This document shows, one piece after another, positions 3-12,344 of a stretch of DNA of 21,916 nt. A program made the position numbers and the translations under genes. The notes beneath the pieces are model-generated. The model was given only the letters and a program-made list of their open reading frames with translations, was not told the DNA's origin and did not search any database. Each line of letters opens with the position of its first letter. Positions within the stretch are counted from its first letter, which is position 1. The DNA lies in IMG/VR virus record IMGVR_UViG_3300012009_000014, positions 1-21,916 of that record; one strand, given 5' to 3'. Source of the stretch: a virus.

Positions 3-203
3 GGGCAACCTGTACACGTCCGGCACATTGCTGGGCCTGAAGGTGTGAGGGGGCGTAATAGCAACAATGAAATTTGCCGCGAAATATTAGGGTGGGAGCC
101 GTCAATCGGCCTGCGCGAGGGACTGGCGTTAACTTACGCCTGGATTGAGCAACAGGTCAACGACCCCCCGCTAAAGCGGGGAGCTTTTACAAGCTCGTGT
201 TGA
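3..203 (+). CDS. GDP-mannose 3,5-epimerase-like NAD-dependent epimerase, C-terminal end (5' partial)
   Basis: Reading from base 3, the frame gives GPEGVRGRNSNNEICREILG followed by WEPSIGLREGLALTYAWIEQ. This closely resembles the C-terminus of extended short-chain dehydrogenase/epimerases of the GDP-mannose 3,5-epimerase type, which end with an RGRNSDN motif, a GWEPS motif and a TYxWI helix. Such enzymes make nucleotide sugars, which suits the glycosyltransferases downstream. The gene begins before the window. Its native stop is not visible: after about residue 51 (CAG at 153-155) the frame enters the omega RNA mini-element and adds about 16 foreign residues (VNDPPLKRGAFTSSC) before a TGA at 201-203 inside the omega RNA's first stem region. 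The catalytic part is outside the window. Assignment to the epimerase family is fairly sure; the exact substrate is inferred. Confidence 0.72.
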   Translation, partial: GQPVHVRHIAGPEGVRGRNSNNEICREILGWEPSIGLREGLALTYAWIEQQVNDPPLKRGAFTSSC

Positions 204-384
204 CCAGTCTTAGCTCTTCGGAGCTACGTTACGGGCGAATGCATAGGCACTCCGGGATGACGCTTCCAGTTCCGGACCCTGCGGTGAGTGGTTAAACAGG
301 CTGAGGGTCTAGGCCAGTGCTGCTCACACCAAACCGTCCGCTAACATTGACGAGGAAGACGTCACCGGCACGTTACGCCGAGAA
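140..384 (+). ncRNA. Stand-alone omega RNA (HEARO RNA), copy 1, guide from the epimerase gene
   Basis: The scaffold from 199 to 360 is identical over 162 bases to the RNA upstream of iscB (9414-9575). Visible structure includes the GTCAAC/GTTGAC closing stem, a CCCCGC-TAAA-GCGGGG hairpin (166-181), a GAGCTT/AAGCTC hairpin (181-196), a UUCG-capped hairpin TAGCTC-TTCG-GAGCTA (211-226) and a terminal CGGC/GCCG hairpin (366-380). In IscB systems the guide is the roughly 16 nt just 5' of the scaffold; here that is about 140-155, ctggattgagcaacag, the end of the epimerase coding region. No iscB follows, so it would have to work in trans with the IscB at 9611. The start at 140 is an estimate from family knowledge. 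Confidence 0.75.
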
Positions 385-497
385 GGCCGGGGCACGCCTT
401 GAGGTAACTCGAAGTGCCCCCTTCGACCGAAGATTAGTGAGAAAGGAGACGCGCCATTCCCCACCCCGCTAAAGCAGGGGGCACCCTGGCGCAACAG
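156..497 (+). mobile_element. ISC-type (IS200/IS605 superfamily) mini-element carrying omega RNA but no iscB
   Basis: The 342-bp block matches both ends of the iscB element at 9367-10930 but lacks the iscB coding sequence. The left end is the GTCAAC...GTTGAC stem (156-161 with 199-204) enclosing two hairpins. The right end is a two-part hairpin: outer stem GCGCCA/TGGCGC (451-456 with 487-492) and inner CCCCGC-TAAA-GCaGGGG (464-480). The sequence CAACAG occurs just outside the left end (150-155) and at the right end (492-497). It looks like an internal-deletion derivative or MITE-like form that would need transposase and IscB in trans. The exact boundaries are inferred from comparison of the two copies and could be off by a few bases. 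Confidence 0.75.
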
Positions 498-500
498 TCT

Positions 501-1127
501 ATGAAAAATCCACATGTAATAATCATTGACTTATGGCCAGTCCAGAAGCAACACGCAACGTTTGCGCCGGTCCATAACGCGGCAGTTCGTATGCGCTGGC
601 GGATCATTCAGGTTGTGCAATGGGCCATCGAACAGGAGATTCCCGTGTCAATCTTTAATCATTTGCGCACGCTGCCAGCTGATCCCCCAGAGTTGCGCCA
701 GGCACTAGAGTGCAAGGGCAAAACATTTAATGATGACTGGTTTCGGCCCGACGCATCAGGCCCGCACAATCGCGGTGTGAGGATTAAAAATGAAAAAGAC
801 TGGCGCACGGCAGACACGCTGCTTTACATGGGGATGAGTATTGATGAATGCGTGGGCGTGCGTACAATGGGATATATTAACGCGCCAAAGGATAAGCGCA
901 AAATAATCATTGTTGATGCCACGACCATTCAAGCGTGTGTCGCGCGCAGCTATTACTACTGGCCCGATTATCTAGCCGAGCATCGTTTGCCGCAGGGTTA
1001 TGAGGACCTATGGTGGGACAGCGCTGAGGAGCTGGAACGCGAGCGAGATTATTTTGCCGCAAACTATGCCAGCCAGTACGCCGAAATTATGACGGCAGAC
1101 ATGTTGACAGGGGCACAAAATGACTGA
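501..1127 (+). CDS. Isochorismatase-like (cysteine hydrolase fold) protein
   Basis: A 208-aa protein. Residues 5-12 (HVIIIDLW) look like the first strand with the catalytic Asp (D10) of the isochorismatase-like hydrolases, and LLYMGMSIDECVGVRT (107-122) matches their hhxxGhxxDxCVxxT nucleophile motif with C117. It is followed by a strand KIIIVDATT, as in the family. A lysine-rich stretch CKGKTF (71-76) may hold the catalytic Lys. The C-terminal tail (150-208) is acidic and does not match the core. The substrate is unknown. No ribosome binding site precedes the start codon, which lies 3 bases after the right end of the mini-element, so its native leader was probably displaced. It overlaps the next gene by 8 bases. 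A deleted remnant of a second copy lies at 10931-10978. Confidence 0.6.
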   Translation: MKNPHVIIIDLWPVQKQHATFAPVHNAAVRMRWRIIQVVQWAIEQEIPVSIFNHLRTLPADPPELRQALECKGKTFNDDWFRPDASGPHNRGVRIKNEKDWRTADTLLYMGMSIDECVGVRTMGYINAPKDKRKIIIVDATTIQACVARSYYYWPDYLAEHRLPQGYEDLWWDSAEELERERDYFAANYASQYAEIMTADMLTGAQND

Positions 1128-2073
1128 GCCTGTTGTGGTGTTGTCGTCGGCGGTTGACACCCAGGATACTGGGGATCGTGTCAGTAATGGCGGCATGAAG
1201 CTATACAACAATTGGGCAAAAGCGTTACGTCTTGCAGGTGTTGAGGCGTATGTATGCACAACGAATGGGCAATATACGCCCTGGCTCATTGAGCATCAGC
1301 CCCATGTGCCGCTAGCGATGGTGCAAGACTGGGTTAAAGCGGGGCGTAATGTGCGGGGGGTTACGTGCTGGTTGCCCGCGCAGGGCTTTATAAATACGGT
1401 CAAGGACCTGTATTACTACGACGCTGAACTAAAATGGACATTACACTTTAAGGCGTTATTTGACCAGTATCGGGAACGTATGCGCGGCATAGCAACACAT
1501 TCGCGGGTGCAGCAAGGATGGTATTTAGCGCAAAATATTGACGCAACATATATCCCCGACTGGACAGATGAACAAAGCTGGCGACCGGACGACACTGTGC
1601 GCGTATTGCAGCGTGTTGGCTTTATGTTTGAAGGCGACCATGTGCCGTCGGACATAAACATTATTCAGCAAATACTACGGCGCGCCGGCATTGAGGCGGA
1701 ATTTATTCCCGTCTCAGGCACAGAAAAAGAAGTCCGCGATATTATGCAAACATGCGATGTGTTTCTTGGGCTTAATCCGGGCAAGCATCCGTTGTGGGGG
1801 GAGGGCTGCCCGCGTTCGCAAATGGAAGCCATGTATGCCGGGGCCGTTGTTCTGGCGTATGATGTGCGGGGTAATCGCGAATATATTCTGGACGGGCTAA
1901 CCGGGGCGCTTGTGCCACGCGGCCATCCAGAACGCATGGGCCAGCGCCTTAAAACCTTGTTGCTCAATCGCTCAGAGCGCGAATTTATGCGCCGGGAAGG
2001 GCAGGGGGTAGTTGGGGGCACGTTTAGCTCAAAGGGACGCGCCGCAGCAATCAAAAAATGGCTAGAGCTATGA
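1120..2073 (+). CDS. GT4-like glycosyltransferase
   Basis: A 317-aa protein with the GT-B pattern of retaining family 4 transferases. The clearest feature is the C-terminal donor-binding segment around residues 228-275: GEGCPRSQMEAMYAGAVVLA, then YDVRGNREYILDG and a GxLVP stretch, as in Glycos_transf_1 domains. It would transfer a sugar from a nucleotide donor in the cytoplasm; donor and acceptor are unknown. The N-terminal acceptor domain is short and poorly recognisable (VSNGGMKLYNNWAKALRLAG, a typical first helix). AGGGG (1110-1114) precedes the ATG by 5 bases. The same leader precedes the other GT4 gene at 10979. It overlaps both neighbours, so translation is probably coupled. Confidence 0.82.
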   Translation: MTEPVVVLSSAVDTQDTGDRVSNGGMKLYNNWAKALRLAGVEAYVCTTNGQYTPWLIEHQPHVPLAMVQDWVKAGRNVRGVTCWLPAQGFINTVKDLYYYDAELKWTLHFKALFDQYRERMRGIATHSRVQQGWYLAQNIDATYIPDWTDEQSWRPDDTVRVLQRVGFMFEGDHVPSDINIIQQILRRAGIEAEFIPVSGTEKEVRDIMQTCDVFLGLNPGKHPLWGEGCPRSQMEAMYAGAVVLAYDVRGNREYILDGLTGALVPRGHPERMGQRLKTLLLNRSEREFMRREGQGVVGGTFSSKGRAAAIKKWLEL

Positions 2074-2675
2074 TCATCACCAAAGCTGTATTGTCGAGCG
2101 CCCTAAAGGAAGTGCCGTTTATACATGAGGCGGAAATCCCAGTGTTGTGTGGTTACGCCAGCGGGGCCAGGCAGGAGATTGTCGAAATTGGGACGGGGTT
2201 CGGAGGCTCGACCGTCTTGTGGCTGCTTTATTCGCAGGCGCGTGTGTCCACCATCGACCCGTTCGTCCAGGACTCGCAAGGAACATGGTGTGCAACGTAT
2301 GAACGAGCGCATGGGGCGATTTTGCGTGCCCTTTCGGAGTTGGCAGGCAATACCCGCGCGCTAGAGCGGTTGGTGATGTATTGTATGCCTAGCGACCAGG
2401 CGGCACAACACTGGAATAACGCCATTGATCTTTTGTACGTCGACGGCAATCACGCCTATAAGGCGGCACGGCAAGATGTGAATATGTGGTTGCCCTTTGT
2501 GCGGCAGGGCGGGCTAATAATTTTACATGACTCGCGGCGCTTGCCACAGGCTGCACCGGGGCATTATGCGCGCGGCTGGCCAGGGCCTACACAAGTGGCC
2601 GTAGAGCTGGCTATTGATGATCGTGTGCGATTGGTTAATGAGGTTCACAGCTTAACGGCGTGGGAGGTGTTGTGA
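2070..2675 (+). CDS. Class I SAM-dependent methyltransferase (Methyltransf_24-like)
   Basis: About 201 aa. The SAM-binding motif I is VEIGTGFGGST (about residues 37-47), followed by the acidic end of strand 2 (STIDPF), a DLLYVDGNHAY motif (about 125-135) and a QGGLIILHDSRR strand/loop. This set is typical of the Methyltransf_24 group, which often methylates sugars or acts in polysaccharide and secondary-metabolite clusters. The ATG at 2070 was chosen because it overlaps the previous stop as ATGA; an in-frame ATG at 2058 would add MARA. It probably modifies a glycan built by the neighbouring transferases; that role is inferred from context. Confidence 0.78.
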   Translation: MIITKAVLSSALKEVPFIHEAEIPVLCGYASGARQEIVEIGTGFGGSTVLWLLYSQARVSTIDPFVQDSQGTWCATYERAHGAILRALSELAGNTRALERLVMYCMPSDQAAQHWNNAIDLLYVDGNHAYKAARQDVNMWLPFVRQGGLIILHDSRRLPQAAPGHYARGWPGPTQVAVELAIDDRVRLVNEVHSLTAWEVL

Positions 2676-3352
2676 TGCAAGGCATACTATTTGACGATAT
2701 TGCTGTTAATATTGATGCGGCGTCTTTAGAGATGGGTGGCTCATGGCTCACCAACGGATGTGCGTGGGGAGGTCACGCCCTAAAAGAGTTTTATTCGTAT
2801 GCTCAGCATTTAGCCAGCCTTACAGTATTTGATGTGGGAGCCAATACGGGAAGTTTTGCGTTGTTGTCAGCTTTTCATCCCGGCATGACAGTTTATGCAT
2901 TCGAGCCTTCACCGCTTGCGCGCGCCATTCTCAAGAAAAACGTTGCGCTCAATGGCCTGGAAAATCGTGTGCATATTATGGACGTGGCACTTAGTGACAG
3001 TCCGGGACAAGGCGCAATCTCGGTGCCTGCGCGCAAAGAACTGTCAGGGTTAACCATGCTAGATGGGCAGCCAGTTCAAGAGTGCCACGTCTTAACCGTT
3101 GAAGTAAGTACAGTGGATTGTGTGCAGATAGATTACGGCCTTCAACGTGTTGACATGTTGAAGGTTGACGTAGAGGGCAAAGAGTTGTCTGTGTTACGCG
3201 GCGGAGCTAAAACGATAGAGCGCGATAGGCCGTATATCATGGCGGAATACCCGACGCAACAGCGATGCAAAAGGCCGATTGATATTGCGTTATGGCTTCG
3301 GGCAAGGGGCTATGAAACCCAAACCATACACGGGGAGATTGTGGCATGGTAA
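2675..3352 (+). CDS. FkbM-family methyltransferase
   Basis: About 225 aa. Motif I is VFDVGANTGSFALLSA (about residues 51-66), then AFEPSPLARAILKKNVALNG, a DMLKVDVEGKELSVLRGG block and a final AEY strand. This combination (DVGAN, FEP, K-DVEG-E) is the FkbM signature. Family members are typically O-methyltransferases acting on sugars or polyketides. The ATG at 2675 overlaps the previous TGA and has GGGAGG (2662-2667) 7 bases upstream; an in-frame GTG at 2660 lies inside this binding site and is unlikely. The gene overlaps the next one by 7 bases. Confidence 0.85.
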   Translation: MQGILFDDIAVNIDAASLEMGGSWLTNGCAWGGHALKEFYSYAQHLASLTVFDVGANTGSFALLSAFHPGMTVYAFEPSPLARAILKKNVALNGLENRVHIMDVALSDSPGQGAISVPARKELSGLTMLDGQPVQECHVLTVEVSTVDCVQIDYGLQRVDMLKVDVEGKELSVLRGGAKTIERDRPYIMAEYPTQQRCKRPIDIALWLRARGYETQTIHGEIVAW

Positions 3353-4026
3353 CCCGTACCGCTATTGTCATGGCAACCTATAACGAAGCAGCCAATATTG
3401 GGGGAATTTTAGAGAACCTTAGCGATTTTGATGTGTTTGTTGTTGATGATAATTCGCCAGACGGCACCGGGGAAATTGCGGAGCGTTATCGTCATGCTCG
3501 GCTTATTTCGCGTGCGCGCAAAATGGGGATAGCCAGTGCCTATCAAGAGGGATGGCGGCAAGCGTTGCGGACAACTCCGGAATATCACCACATCGTACAA
3601 ATGGACGCAGGAAACACGCACGCTCCTGTTGATGTTTGGCAATTGCTTAGTACCGCCGGCTGTCATCACGCCGGCCTAGTAATTGGGTCCCGGTTTTGCA
3701 ATGGTATACGGTGGCGCGGGGCACGCACTGGAATAAGCATAGGGGCGGCGTGGCTTATGCGGCGCATTGGCGTTAGCGTGCATGACGCAACTAGCGGGTT
3801 TAGGTGCTGGCGGCGCGATGTGCTAGAGGCAATATATAATTATCCGCAAGCATACGGTTTCGCTTTTCAGCTAGAGATGCTGTGGCACGCTGCCCAACTA
3901 GAAACCAAAATTGTTGAATATCCCATTGACTATACGCTAACCAACTCAAGTTTTAATGTGCAAATGGTGCAAGAGGCGCTGGCAGTTTACCTGCGCTTGG
4001 TAAAAGCAACTTTTATGTCGCGCTGA
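3346..4026 (+). CDS. GT2 glycosyltransferase, dolichol-phosphate mannosyltransferase-like
   Basis: A 226-aa GT-A fold protein. MATYNEAANIGGIL (9-22) and VVDDNSPDGTGEIA (32-45) are the N-terminal signature of DPM1-like GT2 enzymes. GSRF, HDATSGFRCWRR, YGFAFQLEML and EYPI follow in the family order. The usual catalytic MDADxSH reads QMDAGNTH here (85-92), so the second Asp is replaced. Family members move a sugar from GDP- or UDP-sugar onto a polyprenyl phosphate. There are no C-terminal membrane segments, so it would be soluble or peripheral. It overlaps the FkbM gene and ends 2 bases before the next possible start. GDP-mannose use is suggested only by the epimerase upstream. Confidence 0.85.
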   Translation: MVTRTAIVMATYNEAANIGGILENLSDFDVFVVDDNSPDGTGEIAERYRHARLISRARKMGIASAYQEGWRQALRTTPEYHHIVQMDAGNTHAPVDVWQLLSTAGCHHAGLVIGSRFCNGIRWRGARTGISIGAAWLMRRIGVSVHDATSGFRCWRRDVLEAIYNYPQAYGFAFQLEMLWHAAQLETKIVEYPIDYTLTNSSFNVQMVQEALAVYLRLVKATFMSR

Positions 4027-4055
4027 GAATGTGCTCTGAAGAGGCGGTAATTTTC

Positions 4056-4886
4056 GTGAAATTGACATTGGCGTTTCATATATTCAACAAAGAGGCCAGC
4101 ATTGACGGCGTGCTTAGAAGTTGGCTGGATCGACTGTCGGGTGACCATGACGTCGAGATTGTTTGCATTTTCGATGATTTAGCGGACCGCTCTGATATTG
4201 CAGCGAGGAAAACGCTCGACCAATATGACTACGATGCTCGCTTCCTATATACACGTAACGCCTGGGAGATGGGGGCCAATAATTTAGCGTTGGCTGTGGC
4301 AAGCGGGGATATAATCGTATTTATTCAGGATGACAATTGGATATATACTCCAGCGTGGGATAATGTGATCGTACAGACTGCAAACTTCCCCAAGATGGGA
4401 GCAATTGGTTTGCTGGCGGGGGCGGTGTGGAAAGACACGGGGATTTATACGCGAGTAGAGTGTGATGCACGGCATAAGGGAGAATCTTTCACAACCCATA
4501 ACATCCCGGCAGATGCTTACCCGCCCGGTATATGGCGCGTCGATTTCGTAACACGGCCTTTAGCAGTCTGTGTTGAGACAGCCCGCGCATTGCAGGGGAT
4601 AGATTGGGCATACTGGCCAATGGACTGGGACGAAACTGACTTTGCATGGCGCTTGCAATTGGCAGGGTTTGTCAATGTCATATTACCACTTGATTTGCTA
4701 AACACGGTGGGTAAACTCGACACGATTAAAGCGGCCAGGGCAGAAGAGAACTTTAAGCGCGGGCGTGAAATTTTCATGAGCAAGCACGCCAGCTCAATTT
4801 TACAACATAGAATAGGCGGACACGCGGAGCAGTTACGCCGCATATACGTATCGCATGATGGTAAACTAGCAATCCTGGAGGATTAG
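4056..4886 (+). CDS. GT2-like glycosyltransferase
   Basis: About 276 aa from the GTG at 4056. It begins with KLTLAFHIFNKEASIDGVLR, the N-terminal strand and helix of a GT-A domain, then has an FDD acidic loop, NAWEMGANNLALAVASGD and a FIQDDNW motif (about residues 88-94) corresponding to the metal-binding DxD. MDWDETDFAWRLQLAGF matches the ED-xxD-xxR region of GT2 enzymes. GTG 4056 was chosen because the fold starts there and GAGG (4041-4044) lies upstream; ATG 4029, 2 bases after the previous stop, would add 9 residues and cannot be excluded. Donor and acceptor are unknown. Confidence 0.75.
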   Translation: MKLTLAFHIFNKEASIDGVLRSWLDRLSGDHDVEIVCIFDDLADRSDIAARKTLDQYDYDARFLYTRNAWEMGANNLALAVASGDIIVFIQDDNWIYTPAWDNVIVQTANFPKMGAIGLLAGAVWKDTGIYTRVECDARHKGESFTTHNIPADAYPPGIWRVDFVTRPLAVCVETARALQGIDWAYWPMDWDETDFAWRLQLAGFVNVILPLDLLNTVGKLDTIKAARAEENFKRGREIFMSKHASSILQHRIGGHAEQLRRIYVSHDGKLAILED

Positions 4887-4888
4887 CA

Positions 4889-5275
4889 ATGGCAACCAAA
4901 TCGACAAGCAAAACTGACAAGGCACCCGCCAAGACTGGCAAAAAAGAATTTGAAATCCTGACGGAAAAGCGTCTTAAGCGCGACAGGCACGGGGAGAAGT
5001 GGGGAGTTGAAATTCCTACAGGCAAGTATGTTCCCGTCGTGTTGATTACAACTCCATTGGCGTTCAACGCCGCCCACGAAAATGAGCTGCGTAAAGCACT
5101 CAATGGTGTGTGCAAACGCCACGACCATGACGGTAAACTGTACTTCGAGGTGGGAGAGTCGGATGACGTGATCGAAGCGCGCATTAACGATGCCATTGAT
5201 GTATTGCGCGGCATGGGGATCACGGGGGAGCGTTCGGTTGAATACACGTCTTATCTGCATCGCCGGGAGTGGTAA
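4889..5275 (+). CDS. Hypothetical protein with basic N-terminus
   Basis: A 128-aa protein not recognised. The first 20 residues are rich in Lys, Ser, Thr and Ala (MATKSTSKTDKAPAKTGKKE), probably a flexible, nucleic-acid- or protein-binding tail. The rest looks like a small alpha/beta domain (KYVPVVLITTPLAF, then KLYFEVGESDDVIEARINDA). GGAGG at 4877-4881 sits 7 bases before the ATG, one of the strongest binding sites in this cluster, so it may be made in larger amounts than its neighbours. Its stop TAA overlaps the next ATG (TAATG). A small structural or accessory phage protein is possible, but nothing proves it. Confidence 0.65.
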   Translation: MATKSTSKTDKAPAKTGKKEFEILTEKRLKRDRHGEKWGVEIPTGKYVPVVLITTPLAFNAAHENELRKALNGVCKRHDHDGKLYFEVGESDDVIEARINDAIDVLRGMGITGERSVEYTSYLHRREW

Positions 5276-6042
5276 TGCTTACGCTGTTCTCGGTGCCGCA
5301 GGCGTGGGAAGGACATAGAGCCGTTATACAAAGCAATGCGCTGGAGAGCTGGCGGCGGTTGTCGCCAGCCCCGCTCATTGTATTGCTTTGTGACGACCCC
5401 GGCACTCAGATCGCTGCGGCACAGGCCGGTGCGGGATATATTCCGAATGTGGCGCGCAATGAATACGGCACGCCACTGGTATCCGATGTTTTCGCGCAAG
5501 GTGAAGCCTACGCGCAGACCAATATTGTATGCTATATCAACGCTGATATCATCTTGCTGCCAGGTTTTATGGAGGCGGTTGCTGCGTGTGCCAGTCTGGG
5601 CCGACCGTTCCTCATGATCGGGCAGCGTACCGATCTCGACGTGACTCAGCACTTAGGATTTGCCCCAGGGTGGGGCGGTCGTCTCAAGCGTGAAGCCAAG
5701 CGGCATGGTGTGTTGCATAAAGTTACCGGGATTGACTATTTTGTATATCGACCCGGAACAATGGGGGCAATCCCAGAGTTCGCTTTGGGCCGCTGGCGAT
5801 GGGACAACTGGCTAGTATGGAACGCCCTGGCTCGCGGGTTAATGGTTGTGGATGCAACGCAGGCAATAACAGCCATTCACCAAAACCATGACTATGCCCA
5901 TCACGTTGCCGCAGACCAGCAGCTTGTGGCCAACAACGCGCTTGTGGCACAAACCAAAGGTAAGCTCAAGTTGATTTCTGATGCGACACACATCCTCACC
6001 GCTGACCGTAGGATTACAGTGAAAAATGCGGCAGGAGTGTAA
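5275..6042 (+). CDS. Glycosyltransferase-like protein (GT-A fold, GT2-like)
   Basis: About 255 aa. LTLFSVPQAWEGHRAVIQSN and a PLIVLLCDDPG strand open a GT-A-like domain. CYINADIILLPGFMEAV (about 85-101) is the metal-binding region, with NAD in place of a classical DxD. GIDYFVYRPG and RWRWDNWLVWNALARG (about 175-190) match the acceptor-side region where similar proteins place a catalytic acid. The ATG at 5275 overlaps the preceding TAA and has CGGGAG 5 bases upstream; a GTG at 5269 is in frame but lies on the binding site. It is the last gene of the modification cluster. Specificity is unknown. Confidence 0.68.
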   Translation: MLTLFSVPQAWEGHRAVIQSNALESWRRLSPAPLIVLLCDDPGTQIAAAQAGAGYIPNVARNEYGTPLVSDVFAQGEAYAQTNIVCYINADIILLPGFMEAVAACASLGRPFLMIGQRTDLDVTQHLGFAPGWGGRLKREAKRHGVLHKVTGIDYFVYRPGTMGAIPEFALGRWRWDNWLVWNALARGLMVVDATQAITAIHQNHDYAHHVAADQQLVANNALVAQTKGKLKLISDATHILTADRRITVKNAAGV

Positions 6043-8227: not shown

Positions 8228-9355
8228 ATGGCTGAAGTTCAAGGAGCACAGACAATTTTGGCGCGGGCGCTGCCGACTGGTGTTGACGGCGCGCGCTTAA
8301 CCCAGTGGCAGTTGCGCGATGGCGTGACGTGGGCACAACTCATTGGCCGCACGGCCCAGGCGTTAGGGCAGTTTAATAATGACCTGATGCAAAAATGGGG
8401 CTGGCTGATGTTCTCAACGGAAGAGCCTTACTTTGAATACCCTAATGGCGGATCGCTGACTAGTGCCCGAGTAATTACGGACCTGGACAAGCTCGATCCA
8501 ATCTCCGAAGGCACTATTGCACACCAATTGCAACTGTTGCCCGTTGGGGATGCCATTGGTGGTACGTATTTCTGGATGCGTGATGCACGCTCGGCGCAAA
8601 TCACCGCGCAGATTAACGGCGTTGTCAATCGCATCCGTGAAAAGTTTGAGGAAGACCTGCTGACGCGCTGGTTGACCAATACCGAAAACAACTTTGCTAC
8701 CAGTGCCTACGATGTACCGTTTGTGCGCGGCGCTGGCGGCAGTGTAGACTTTGTGCCGCCCGCACATGGCGGAGAAACCTTTTCCAGCGCGCACGATCAC
8801 TATATGGGCATAGACTCGGACAGCTACGGGTATGATGATTTCCTAAACCAGATGGCCGAGACGCTGCAAGAGCATGGGCATGAGGCACCGTATACTGCAA
8901 TGGTATCGCGCAGCGATATTAGCAGCTATTACGCGCTTCCCGACTTTGTAGAGCCGCTGGATCGGCGCGTGGTTATTGTAGACCGCGCTGCTGCTGACAC
9001 GGAGGGTGCCGGGTTCTTTTCGCGCCAACCGCGTGAGTTTGGGATCGTTGGTGGGTTCCAGTCTGAGTACGGCTATATCGAGCTGCGTGCCACCGCGCGC
9101 ATCCCGACCAAATACGCCGGATTGGCCAAGTCGTATGGTCAAAACAACATGCGCAATCCGCTTGCGGTGCGCGTACATCCCGACGAAGGCTTTGGGGCAA
9201 AAGTCCTGACCTACACCCGCGCAGATGACACCGTTCCGATCAAAAAGTTGGACGTTGTAATGGAATATGGCGTTGGGGTGGGTATGGATCGCACCAACGG
9301 CGTAGCGGGCTATCTGGATAGCTCCGGCACCTGGACGAACCCGACCATCTCGTAA
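8228..9355 (+). CDS. Major capsid protein (HK97-fold, inferred)
   Basis: A 375-aa protein. The ATG at 8228 has GAGGAGA (8213-8219) 8 bases upstream; the frame is open back to 8129, but that part overlaps the decoration gene. Size, place after protease and decoration genes, and a strong binding site all mark it as the MCP. Visible parts include an N-terminal arm, a long helix (QITAQINGVVNRIREKFEED) resembling the HK97 spine helix, and a C-terminal half with RVVIVDRAA and KYAGLAKSYGQNNMRNPLAV typical of A-domain strands. Its stop codon lies inside the probable guide of the adjacent omega RNA. Confidence 0.78.
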   Translation: MAEVQGAQTILARALPTGVDGARLTQWQLRDGVTWAQLIGRTAQALGQFNNDLMQKWGWLMFSTEEPYFEYPNGGSLTSARVITDLDKLDPISEGTIAHQLQLLPVGDAIGGTYFWMRDARSAQITAQINGVVNRIREKFEEDLLTRWLTNTENNFATSAYDVPFVRGAGGSVDFVPPAHGGETFSSAHDHYMGIDSDSYGYDDFLNQMAETLQEHGHEAPYTAMVSRSDISSYYALPDFVEPLDRRVVIVDRAAADTEGAGFFSRQPREFGIVGGFQSEYGYIELRATARIPTKYAGLAKSYGQNNMRNPLAVRVHPDEGFGAKVLTYTRADDTVPIKKLDVVMEYGVGVGMDRTNGVAGYLDSSGTWTNPTIS

Positions 9356-9596
9356 GCACCTTAACAGTCAACGACCCCCCACTGACGTGGGGAGCTTGCG
9401 CAAGCAGGCTCGCGTTGACCAGTCTTAGCTCTTCGGAGCTACGTTACGGGCGAATGCATAGGCACTCCGGGATGACGCTTCCAGTTCCGGACCCTGCGGT
9501 GAGTGGTTAAACAGGCTGAGGGTCTAGGCCAGTGCTGCTCACACCAAACCGTCCGCTAACATTGACGAGGAAGACATTACCCGCGAAAGCGGAGAA
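9351..9596 (+). ncRNA. omega RNA (HEARO RNA) of the iscB element, guide at the MCP stop codon
   Basis: The scaffold begins at the GTCAAC/GTTGAC closing stem (9367-9372 with 9414-9419), then hairpin CCCCAC-TGAC-GTGGGG (9377-9392), hairpin GCTTGC/GCAAGC (9394-9405), the UUCG-capped TAGCTC/GAGCTA hairpin (9426-9441) and a final CCGC-GAAA-GCGG hairpin (9581-9592), 18 bases before iscB. Position and structure are those of the RNA that guides IscB. The expected guide is the roughly 16 nt upstream, cgtaagcaccttaaca, which includes the TAA stop of the MCP gene. The 5' limit is estimated from what is known of IscB RNAs. Confidence 0.82.
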
Positions 9597-10930
9597 AACA
9601 GGTAACAACGATGCAAAACTATGTACTGGTTCTGGACACAAATTGGCAACCACTCGAGCCGTGTCATCCGGCACGCGCTCGGCAGTTGCTGCGTGAGGGC
9701 AAGGCGGCGGTGTTTCGCCACCAACCGTTCACGATCATCCTGAAGTATGCGGTCAACGATCCGCAGACACAGGAAAGCGAACTCAAGATCGACCCCGGCT
9801 CCAAAACGACCGGGATGGCCTTGGTGCGGCATGGCAAGCGCGGCCCCCGTGTGATTTGGGCCGCAGAACTTGAACACCGGGGCGAGACGGTCAAGGAGGC
9901 GCTGGCGACGCGGCACGTACAACGAAGAGCACGACGAACGCGCAACATGCGCTATCGCCCGCCGCGCTTTGACAACCGTCGCAGGCCGGACGGCTGGCTG
10001 CCGCCGTCGCTGCTGAGCCGGGTCAACAACACCATCACCTGGGCCGCACGGTTGTACCGCTGGACACCCTACACGCATATTGCGGTCGAACAGGTTAAGT
10101 TTGATACGCAGTTGATGGATAATCCGGCAATCAGCGGCATCGAGTATCAACAAGGAACGCTGCAAGGCTACAACGTGCGCGAATACTTGCTCGAACGCGA
10201 CGGGCGGAAATGTGCGTACTGTGGCGCAGAGCAAGTGCCGCTGGAGATTGAGCACATTGTGCCGCGCTCGCGCGGTGGCAGTGATCGTGTTACGAATTTG
10301 ACGCTTTCCTGCGGTCCCTGCAATCAAACCAAAAACAACCAGACTGCCGCCGAATTTGGTTTCCCGAACATTCAAGGCCGAGCCAAACAACGATCCATGC
10401 GCGACGTTGCCGCCGTTAATGCTACCCGTAACCGGATCGTACAGGAATTGCAGCATTCCGGCCTACCAGTCCTCACCGGGACCGGAGCCGAGACAAAATT
10501 CAATCGGACTCGCCAAGGCTACCCCAAAGCGCACTGGATCGACGCAGCTTGCGTTGGGTCTACGGGCGGGGCGGTGCTTCTCGATCCTGAATTGCAGGTC
10601 TTGAGTATTAAGGCCACAGGCCGCCAGCGCCGCCAGATGCAGTTGGTGGATCGTTTTGGCTTCCCGCGCACCAAACCGAAAGTGTGCAGCATCGTCAGGG
10701 GTTTCAAGACCGGCGATCTGGGGAGAGCAGTGGTTCCGCCTGGACGGCGCACCAGCGGCACACATGGGGGTCGGGTGGCTGTTCGTACTCAGGGTACTTT
10801 CCGGGTCGGTAGTGTGGACGGGATTAGTTGGCGATTTTGTACTCTATTACAGCGTGCTGACGGCTATAGCTATCGAAAGGAGAGCGCCATTCCTCACCCC
10901 GCTAAAGCAGGGTGTCTCCTGGCGCAACAG
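9367..10930 (+). mobile_element. iscB-bearing ISC element (IS200/IS605 superfamily), without tnpA
   Basis: The element carries omega RNA and iscB only; no Y1 transposase gene is in the window, so it must be moved in trans or spread by homing. The right end is a two-part hairpin with outer stem GCGCCA/TGGCGC (10884-10889 with 10920-10925) and inner CACCC...GGGTG (10895-10914). TAACAG overlaps the left end (9362-9367) and CAACAG lies at the right end (10925-10930). It is inserted 11 bases after the MCP stop, so it does not break a structural gene. The limits come from comparison with the mini-element at 156-497. Confidence 0.75.
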
Positions 10931-10966
10931 CCTATGGAAAAGACTGGCGCACGGCAGACATGTTGA
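9611..10966 (+). CDS. iscB: IscB RNA-guided nuclease
   Basis: A 451-aa protein with the full IscB layout: N-terminal PLMP-like domain (VLVLDTNWQPLEPCHPARAR, 5-24), RuvC-I with D61 (KIDPGSKTTGMA), an Arg-rich bridge helix (about 101-123), RuvC-II with E160 (IAVEQVKFD), an HNH domain with zinc-type Cys pairs C201/C204 and C234/C237 and catalytic H215 (EIEHIVPRSRGGSDRVTNL), and RuvC-III with H308 and D311 (KAHWIDAACVG). The C-terminal part (about 325-430) is the RNA/target-interaction region. All catalytic residues are present, so it should be active. It cuts DNA matched to the omega RNA guide. The last 11 codons lie beyond the element's right end, in the remnant of a flanking gene. ACAGGTAAC before the ATG is a weak binding site. 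Confidence 0.92.
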   Translation: MQNYVLVLDTNWQPLEPCHPARARQLLREGKAAVFRHQPFTIILKYAVNDPQTQESELKIDPGSKTTGMALVRHGKRGPRVIWAAELEHRGETVKEALATRHVQRRARRTRNMRYRPPRFDNRRRPDGWLPPSLLSRVNNTITWAARLYRWTPYTHIAVEQVKFDTQLMDNPAISGIEYQQGTLQGYNVREYLLERDGRKCAYCGAEQVPLEIEHIVPRSRGGSDRVTNLTLSCGPCNQTKNNQTAAEFGFPNIQGRAKQRSMRDVAAVNATRNRIVQELQHSGLPVLTGTGAETKFNRTRQGYPKAHWIDAACVGSTGGAVLLDPELQVLSIKATGRQRRQMQLVDRFGFPRTKPKVCSIVRGFKTGDLGRAVVPPGRRTSGTHGGRVAVRTQGTFRVGSVDGISWRFCTLLQRADGYSYRKESAIPHPAKAGCLLAQQPMEKTGARQTC

Positions 10967-10978
10967 CAGGGGCACAAA
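10931..10978 (+). pseudogene. Collapsed remnant of the hydrolase-like gene
   Basis: The 48 bases between the right end of the iscB element and the next start codon are made of two pieces of the region downstream of the mini-element. Bases 10934-10960 match 790-816 with one mismatch, and 10951-10978 match 1092-1119. The joins fall on short direct repeats: ATGAAAAA (501-508 and 790-797) and ACGGCAGACA (807-816 and 1092-1101). About 289 and 285 bases were lost, removing nearly all of a gene like that at 501-1127. The ribosome binding site for the next gene is kept. Confidence 0.7.
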
Positions 10979-12004
10979 ATGAATACAAACAATCACCTAC
11001 GCATCAATTACCTAATGTACCGGATGCTATGGTTTGACGGTTATGGTCGATATGGCCTCCAACAAGTGAAAGCGCTGGCGCGGAAAGGGGTAGATGTTTT
11101 TCCCGAACATGTGCTGGCGCTGGAGGCTCCGGGCTGGCTTCAGCGAATGCGTGGCCTTGATATGTCACGGGTTACAATTTCGCTGATGCCCCCACACGAA
11201 ATGTGCGGGATGCCTGGACGCCAGTGGAACTACACCATGTATGAAGGGACAGGTCTGCCCGATGAATGGGCAAGGCATATCAACGAAAAAGCTGAGCGAT
11301 TGCTTGTGCCTTCGGAATGGCTTGTGGATGTATTTCGTGAACATGGCGTAAAACCACAAATACCGATCCATGTCGTGCCCGGCGGAGTAGACGTTGACGA
11401 ATTTCCGATCATCGACACACCGCCGCCTGAACACCAACCGTATACGTTTTTGGCATTTGGGGACCGAGGCTCACGCAAGGGCCTTGACACAGCGTGGCGT
11501 GCGTTTTATCATGCATTTCGCGACTCGCGTGATGTACGCCTTGTGGTCAAATCGCGACCTACTAATCTGGTTTTTTTGTCAACCGCCAGGGGCGACCCGC
11601 GTGTATCGGTGTGGCGAGAGGATGTGCGAAGTCTGGCAGATGTATTTGCTCAGGTGGACTGTTTTGTTTTCCCGACTAAGGGCGAAGGGTGGGGGATGCC
11701 ACCCCGCGAAGCTGCCGCTATGGGCTTGCCGGTAATTTGCACACGCTTCGGCGGATGCGAAAGTGGCATTGACCAATGGGCTTTGCCAATCAACAACTAT
11801 AAGATGACTGCCGCCACACTGCGCGGCGGCGGCCAGTGGGCGATGCCGGATGTAGATGAAACGGCGGACTTGATGCGTTGGTGTTATGAAAATCGATTGG
11901 AAGCCAAGCAACGCGGGGTACAATCTGCGCATTGGTTGCGAGATAACCAGACCTGGGATCACAGCGCGCAAAAACTCATCGAGCTTCTGGAAGACTGGGG
12001 ATAA
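10979..12004 (+). CDS. GT4 glycosyltransferase between capsid and neck genes
   Basis: A 341-aa GT-B enzyme of family 4. LLVPSEWLVDVFREHGV and IHVVPGGVDVDEF (about 105-142) are the linker and start of the donor domain; FLAFGDRGSRKGLDTAWRAF gives the R-x-KG motif, and CFVFPTKGEGWGMPPREAAA then MGLPVICTRFGG is the nucleotide-sugar site with the E-x7-E type pattern. ACAGGGG upstream of the ATG is identical to the leader of the GT4 gene at 1120, though the two proteins are not close relatives. The gene starts 12 bases after the iscB stop and ends 1 base before the neck gene. Its place beside the MCP suggests a virion protein as acceptor, which is inference. Confidence 0.85.
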   Translation: MNTNNHLRINYLMYRMLWFDGYGRYGLQQVKALARKGVDVFPEHVLALEAPGWLQRMRGLDMSRVTISLMPPHEMCGMPGRQWNYTMYEGTGLPDEWARHINEKAERLLVPSEWLVDVFREHGVKPQIPIHVVPGGVDVDEFPIIDTPPPEHQPYTFLAFGDRGSRKGLDTAWRAFYHAFRDSRDVRLVVKSRPTNLVFLSTARGDPRVSVWREDVRSLADVFAQVDCFVFPTKGEGWGMPPREAAAMGLPVICTRFGGCESGIDQWALPINNYKMTAATLRGGGQWAMPDVDETADLMRWCYENRLEAKQRGVQSAHWLRDNQTWDHSAQKLIELLEDWG

Positions 12005-12005
12005 C

Positions 12006-12344
12006 ATGGCCACGATGACAAGCACGCAACTGAGCGACATTCGCGGCGACATTGGCGACGATGGCACCGTGTTTACTGATGCGGAACTAAATCGCCTATA
12101 TACCCGCGCATCCAGCAGCTACGACAAAACGGTTGTGCTGGCGCTTCGGCAAATCATGGCCAACGCTGCCAAGCTATACAACTATAAGATTGCGCAGTCA
12201 AGTGAGAGCAAGGCAGCGGTATTCAGCCACGCAAAAGCGTTACTGGAATACTGGGAAGAGCAAGTGCTCGATGCCGGTCAGCAAGTAAGTATTGTGGGAG
12301 TGCGTACTGTGCCCCCACGCGACAAGGACGAACCAAGCACATGA
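12006..12344 (+). CDS. Head-tail connector (adaptor) protein, putative
   Basis: A 112-aa, mostly helical protein: TSTQLSDIRGDIGDDGTVFTDAELNRLY then a long helical segment with ALRQIMANAAKLYNYKIAQS. This pattern, an N-terminal DIRxxIGD and FTDxELxxL, is typical of gp6-like adaptor proteins that sit under the portal. It is the first neck gene after the MCP once the iscB/GT insert is removed, and its TGA overlaps the next ATG (ATGA). Assignment comes from pattern and order. Confidence 0.62.
   Translation: MATMTSTQLSDIRGDIGDDGTVFTDAELNRLYTRASSSYDKTVVLALRQIMANAAKLYNYKIAQSSESKAAVFSHAKALLEYWEEQVLDAGQQVSIVGVRTVPPRDKDEPST

What the first reader, a model, noticed from the sequence alone, without database searches (positions are those of the whole stretch)
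9351..10966. IscB with a guide lying on the major capsid stop codon: possible RNA-guided homing
Seen: an intact IscB (D61, E160, H215, H308 and D311 present) with its omega RNA 11 bases after the MCP stop. Known: the IscB guide is the sequence just 5' of the scaffold. Here that is cgtaagcaccttaaca, which spans the MCP TAA. Inference: the complex would cut related phages that lack the element at the end of their capsid gene, and repair would copy in the element with the neighbouring glycosyltransferase, as homing endonucleases do in phages.
Basis: partly seen in the sequence, partly recalled or inferred. Interest (0 to 1): 0.85.

Follow-up and report, generated by a model that had tools for sequence, protein, structure and literature searches.

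The report
Phage IscB transposon beside capsid gene
A bacterial virus carries a small RNA-guided DNA-cutting transposon (IscB, the Cas9 ancestor) right behind its capsid gene, with a guide that records its own insertion site, so it could in principle cut sister viruses that lack it; this is a known kind of element, and the virus also carries a second guide RNA without a nuclease gene.

Summary
An intact IscB (9611-10966, all five catalytic residues) follows an omega RNA (9367-9580, Rfam HEARO, E 2e-30) that starts 11 bases after the stop codon of a genuine major capsid gene. The 16 bases 5' of the scaffold span that stop. Thirteen insertions compared here (two in the window) abut RTGR in 12, usually the next gene's start codon. 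A sibling genome shows one exact empty site (...CTGAG|GTGACT...), and sister Nodularia phages are polymorphic for another IscB. A guide matching the empty insertion site is therefore automatic for this element class, not special to a capsid gene. Homing between co-infecting phages is the known IS200/IS605 retention or gene-drive logic applied to phage. It fits, but no relative of this phage with an empty site was found, and the flank after the right end is a deleted copy of a gene from beside the first omega RNA, so the ancestral target is uncertain. The glycosyltransferase lies outside the element. New member of a known kind.

The parts
8228..9355 (+). major capsid protein gene; stop TAA 9353-9355
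   Evidence: phrog_3990 major head protein E 1.5e-15; 25% to Mycobacterium phage Predator major head protein
9351..9366 (+). predicted guide of omega RNA 2 (cgtaagcaccttaaca), spanning the capsid stop codon
   Evidence: 16 bases directly 5' of the HEARO scaffold; guide position and length from PMC9640706
9367..9580 (+). omega RNA scaffold (HEARO) and left end of the IscB element; begins GTCAACG
   Evidence: RF02033, 143.6 bits, E 1.9e-30, full model
9611..10966 (+). IscB, 451 aa; conserved part ends about residue 421, remainder is read-through into the right end and flank
   Evidence: Pfam RRXRR 3.9e-70, HNH; catalytic residues, invariant in 15 IscBs; solved IscB relatives
10884..10933 (+). 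right end of the element: hairpin GCGCCATTCC-CACCCCGCTAAAGCAGGGTG-CCTGGCGC then CAACAGCCT, immediately followed by ATGGAA
   Evidence: shared with the right end at 451-500 (88%); same position relative to RTGR in relatives
10934..10982 (+). 49-bp junction: mosaic of ORF 501-1127 (790-816 joined to 1102-1123 through the repeat ACGGCAGACA), ending at the glycosyltransferase start codon
   Evidence: direct repeats D2, D8, D12; sequences printed
10979..12004 (+). glycosyltransferase (GT4-like), outside the element
   Evidence: PF20706/PF13692; no significant similarity to the first glycosyltransferase at 1120-2073
12006..12344 (+). next head/neck-region gene; start ATGGCC would serve as RTGR motif if the whole block 9367-12005 is the insert
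   Evidence: phrog_5274/phrog_1732, weak, unknown function; position
140..155 (+). predicted guide of omega RNA 1 (ctggattgagcaacag)
   Evidence: 16 bases 5' of the second HEARO; the only match to guide plus RTGR is its own occupied site, one mismatch
156..365 (+). second omega RNA, with no IscB gene after it; 162-nt core identical to omega RNA 2
   Evidence: RF02033, 139.4 bits; identity
451..500 (+). right end of the ORF-less element, followed by ATGAAA (start codon of ORF 501-1127)
   Evidence: 88% identical to the right end at 10884-10941

Best explanation
This is an IscB (HEARO/ISC-type, IS200/IS605-like) mobile element in a tailed phage. It landed behind the capsid gene, and because its guide is simply the DNA to its left, insertion programmed the nuclease with the last bases of the capsid gene plus the 11-base spacer. 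IscB bound to this RNA should cut any DNA with that 16-mer followed by an RTGR-like motif, i.e. the same site without the element, and leave its own copy alone because the scaffold begins GTCA. Repair from an element-bearing copy would restore the element after excision and, in mixed infection, copy it into sister phages. A second, ORF-less omega RNA at 156-365 can probably be served in trans by the same IscB and so guard a second insertion site. Shown: intact protein, both RNAs, element ends, RTGR rule, empty sites for related elements. Inferred: activity, guide 5' end, trans use, copying between phages.
For: Intact IscB with all catalytic residues, invariant across 15 relatives. Two HEARO RNAs far above cut-off. 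Right ends of 13 insertions (window copies plus L003, L004, L006, L012-L016, L018, L030, L040) abut ATGA, ATGG or GTGA in 12 and ATGT in one. Precise empty site of L040 in sibling genome G363...CTGAG|GTGACTATG.... Phage polymorphism: Nodularia phage kac68v162 has an IscB, while kac68v161 and the kac65 phages, 99.5-99.8% identical on the left flank, have the uninterrupted site. Both guides are followed in the window by GTCA, a one-base departure from RTGR. The omega RNA core is identical over 162 of 162 bases between the two copies although right ends differ by 12% and cores of relatives are 71-85% identical, which suggests both serve one IscB or were recently converted.
Against: No relative of this phage was found, so no empty site for this guide: the only two exact 16-mer matches in IMG/VR are unrelated chance hits. 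The DNA right of the element is a remnant of a gene from near omega RNA 1, so left and right flanks do not reconstruct one ancestral target. RTGR boundaries in most relatives were read next to a plausible right end rather than proved by an empty site (one proved). No transposase in the window. No expression data.
Confidence: 0.72

Rival explanations
1. Passive passenger: an IscB element inserted behind the capsid gene, the guide is whatever lies to its left, and nuclease activity serves only to restore the element after excision in the same genome; no transfer between phages matters.
For: The same geometry occurs in bacterial chromosomes of many phyla, where homing between phages cannot be the reason; no sign here of repeated spread of this site.
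Against: Sister Nodularia phages on the same host strain are polymorphic for an IscB insertion, the situation in which biased inheritance would act. TnpB elements do act as a gene drive in multicopy plasmids (PMC11870625).
Confidence: 0.45
2. Exclusion weapon: the complex mainly destroys competing related phages that lack the element, with little copying.
For: The guide would match only close relatives; co-infection competition is common in phages (general knowledge).
Against: A guide fixed to one site is escaped by one mutation or by gaining the element; no dedicated regulation or accessory gene seen; nothing distinguishes it from ordinary IscB elements.
Confidence: 0.15
3. Relic: the element is no longer functional; flanks are rearranged and the ORF lost its own stop.
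For: The right flank is a twice-deleted gene remnant; the ORF runs through the right end; no transposase in the window.
Against: Full-length ORF, all catalytic and conserved positions intact, scaffold complete and high-scoring; another phage IscB (L006) also reads through its right end.
Confidence: 0.2

Closest known systems
IscB/HEARO elements (RF02033; OgeuIscB, MG35-1)
   Same: RRXRR, RuvC and HNH nuclease, omega RNA directly 5' of the gene, guide 5' of scaffold, motif 3' of target
   Different: Sits in a phage structural operon, with a second ORF-less omega RNA in the same genome; 451-aa ORF reads through the right end. More than 16% of HEARO contigs are already classed as viral (PMC9755519)
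TnpB of IS200/IS605: RNA-guided retention and plasmid gene drive (PMC11870625)
   Same: Guide records the insertion site, so DNA lacking the element is cut and element-bearing copies are favoured
   Different: TnpB is a RuvC-only nuclease with its guide at the opposite end; shown experimentally for plasmids, not for this phage
Phage homing endonucleases (HNH, GIY-YIG)
   Same: Would cut element-free sister genomes during mixed infection and be copied in by repair
   Different: Specificity here would come from RNA, rewritten at every insertion, not from a protein-DNA interface
IscB of Nodularia phage vB_NspS-kac68v162
   Same: Intact IscB in a tailed phage with guide equal to the left flank, 50% identical protein
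   Different: Inserted in an IS607 tnpB gene rather than a structural operon; sister isolates with the empty site exist

Membership tests
IscB/HEARO mobile element | RRXRR-containing protein with split RuvC and HNH domains and catalytic residues D, E, H (HNH), H, D | tested here: met
IscB/HEARO mobile element | HEARO omega RNA directly upstream of the gene in the same orientation | tested here: met
   RF02033 9367-9580, 143.6 bits
IscB/HEARO mobile element | Defined left and right ends, right end abutting RTGR | tested here: met
   two copies in the window share both ends; RTGR follows both
IscB/HEARO mobile element | Empty site equals guide plus motif for this very insertion | tested here: inconclusive
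   no relative of the phage found; shown only for related elements
IscB/HEARO mobile element | RNA-guided double-strand cleavage | not testable with these tools
   needs biochemistry
Homing element / gene drive | Polymorphic presence among close relatives at one site | tested here: inconclusive
   no close relatives of this phage; met for the Nodularia phage IscB
Homing element / gene drive | Biased inheritance in mixed infection | not testable with these tools
   needs co-infection experiment
IS200/IS605 transposon | Y1 transposase gene tnpA within the element | tested here: not met
   no such ORF within the element; only a few IscB/HEARO loci have one nearby (PMC9755519)

The most novel reading that the evidence does not exclude
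One phage-encoded IscB works with two omega RNAs of different guide, one attached to it behind the capsid gene and one standing alone before a glycosylation cassette, and RNA-guided cutting drives the spread of surface-modification genes between co-infecting phages, the insert behind the capsid gene being the whole block 9367-12005.
Probability: 0.15. Interest if true: 0.75.

Novelty: new member of a known kind. Interest (0 to 1): 0.45.

Why it matters
If active, phages would carry homing elements whose specificity is rewritten by RNA at each insertion, extending the retention and gene-drive role shown for TnpB to IscB and to mixed phage infection. The Nodularia kac68v161/kac68v162 pair found here, two phages on one host strain differing by an IscB insertion, makes that directly testable with existing isolates.

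Tried and rejected
Searches for relatives of this phage by capsid, tape measure, the 934-aa tail-region protein, glycosyltransferase and ORF 501-1127 in IMG/VR gave no usable sibling (the glycosyltransferase gave one 30%-identical hit). The capsid protein in 301 genomes of the phylum of L013 (an Anaerolineae MAG) gave only a 66-residue fragment. DNA and neck-gene searches in the phage collection gave nothing. The exact 16-mer guide in IMG/VR gave two chance matches in unrelated contexts, followed by TATAAA and AGGAGC. Empty sites for L013, L016 and L030 were sought in related genomes and not found; L006 portal relatives gave only itself. The idea that the two glycosyltransferases are duplicates was rejected. 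The idea that position on the capsid stop is special was rejected because L006 has the same layout at another gene boundary. Weinberg et al. 2009, which from memory reports HEARO integration before ATGA/GTGA, is not in the library.

Full report
Observation. Pfam gives RRXRR 3.9e-70 and HNH, and OgeuIscB and other solved IscBs are recovered. Rfam places HEARO at 9367-9580, E 1.9e-30. The gene before it is a major capsid protein (phrog_3990, E 1.5e-15) ending at 9355. The guide position 5' of the scaffold and a length of 16-17 are established for OgeuIscB (PMC9640706). So the described arrangement is real.

What was missed. A second HEARO RNA lies at 156-365 (139.4 bits), followed by no IscB but by the same right-end hairpin (451-500 against 10884-10933, 88%). 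The 162-nt cores are identical, while the guide-proximal hairpins differ but fold alike, including a G-C to A-T exchange. Cores of other relatives are 71-85% identical to it. One IscB could therefore use two guides; equally, gene conversion could have made the cores equal.

Element ends and target rule. In 11 related loci and both window copies the right end is followed at once by ATGA, ATGG or GTGA (one ATGT), in most the start codon of the next gene. These boundaries were read by eye beside the right-end hairpin and are not independent proofs. One is proved: the flanks of L040 (IscB 57-59% identical) are joined without the element in a sibling genome as ...CTGAG|GTGACTATG.... From memory, ATGA/GTGA integration was described for HEARO in 2009; that paper could not be read here. 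OgeuIscB needs NNRR (PMC9640706), which RTGR satisfies. After both window guides comes GTCA, which fails position 3, so the carrier would be spared.

Same layout elsewhere. In the phage contig L006 an IscB element sits between the stop codon of one ORF (ending at 1476, where the scaffold begins at 1477) and the start codon of a portal-like gene. A guide spanning a stop codon is thus an expected outcome when the motif is a start codon. L005 carries two complete IscB copies near virion-like genes. Nodularia phage kac68v162 carries an IscB in an IS607 tnpB gene; kac68v161 from the same host strain and the kac65 phages have the intact site. Insertions in phages are therefore polymorphic, and the guide matches the empty site there by construction.

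The local history is not simple. The 49 bases right of the element (10934-10982) match pieces of ORF 501-1127, the gene behind the ORF-less copy: 790-816 and 1102-1123, joined through a 10-base repeat, with a further ATGAAAAA repeat at 501 and 790. Two deletions between short repeats in a copy of that gene would give it. This suggests that element, gene remnant and glycosyltransferase came together from a locus like 156-2073, and that the left junction with the capsid gene arose separately or by insertion of the whole block before ATGGCC, the start of the next gene at 12006. Either way the joined ancestral site is inferred, not seen. The two glycosyltransferases are not duplicates.

No relative with an empty site was found: nothing for the capsid protein in IMG/VR, two chance matches for the 16-mer, nothing by DNA or neck gene in the phage collection. 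The prediction stands untested rather than refuted.

Mechanism. Most likely the element does what IS200/IS605 RNA-guided nucleases do: cut the element-free site so that repair or biased survival restores or spreads the element. This is shown for TnpB in plasmids as a gene drive (PMC11870625), and viral HEARO loci are known (PMC9755519). Application to mixed phage infection is inference. The glycosyltransferase as hitchhiking cargo is possible by co-conversion of flanks but has no direct support.

Novelty. A new member of a known kind, with an interesting second guide RNA and a useful natural pair of Nodularia phages for testing.

Noticed in passing
window 156-500: ORF-less HEARO element with its own guide and right end, inserted near the 3' end of what reads like an epimerase gene (recalled resemblance; the 65-aa fragment had no Pfam hit) and directly before ORF 501-1127.
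   Followed up: partly
window 501-6042: Cluster of glycosyltransferases and methyltransferases (a group 1 and two GT2 glycosyltransferases, FkbM and Methyltransf_24) beside the head genes, likely a surface-glycan modification cassette.
   Followed up: no
L047 2740-4380 against L050 and L051: Nodularia phage kac68v162 has an IscB element inside an IS607 tnpB gene; sister phages including kac68v161 from the same host strain have the intact site, junction AAGA.
   Followed up: yes
L006 1477-3084: IscB element exactly between the stop codon of one phage ORF and the start codon of a portal-like gene, the same layout as in the window.
   Followed up: partly
L005 5684-7263 and 11323-12924: A viral contig with two complete IscB-omega RNA copies 5.6 kb apart.
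   Followed up: no
right ends of L004, L005, L006, L014, L040: The element's right end often carries a Shine-Dalgarno-like sequence just before the RTGR start codon, so insertion may replace the ribosome-binding site it displaces.
   Followed up: no
window 10934-10982 and 501-1123: Junction explained by two deletions between short direct repeats (ATGAAAAA; ACGGCAGACA) in a copy of ORF 501-1127; homology to the first locus stops exactly at the glycosyltransferase start codon ATGA.
   Followed up: partly
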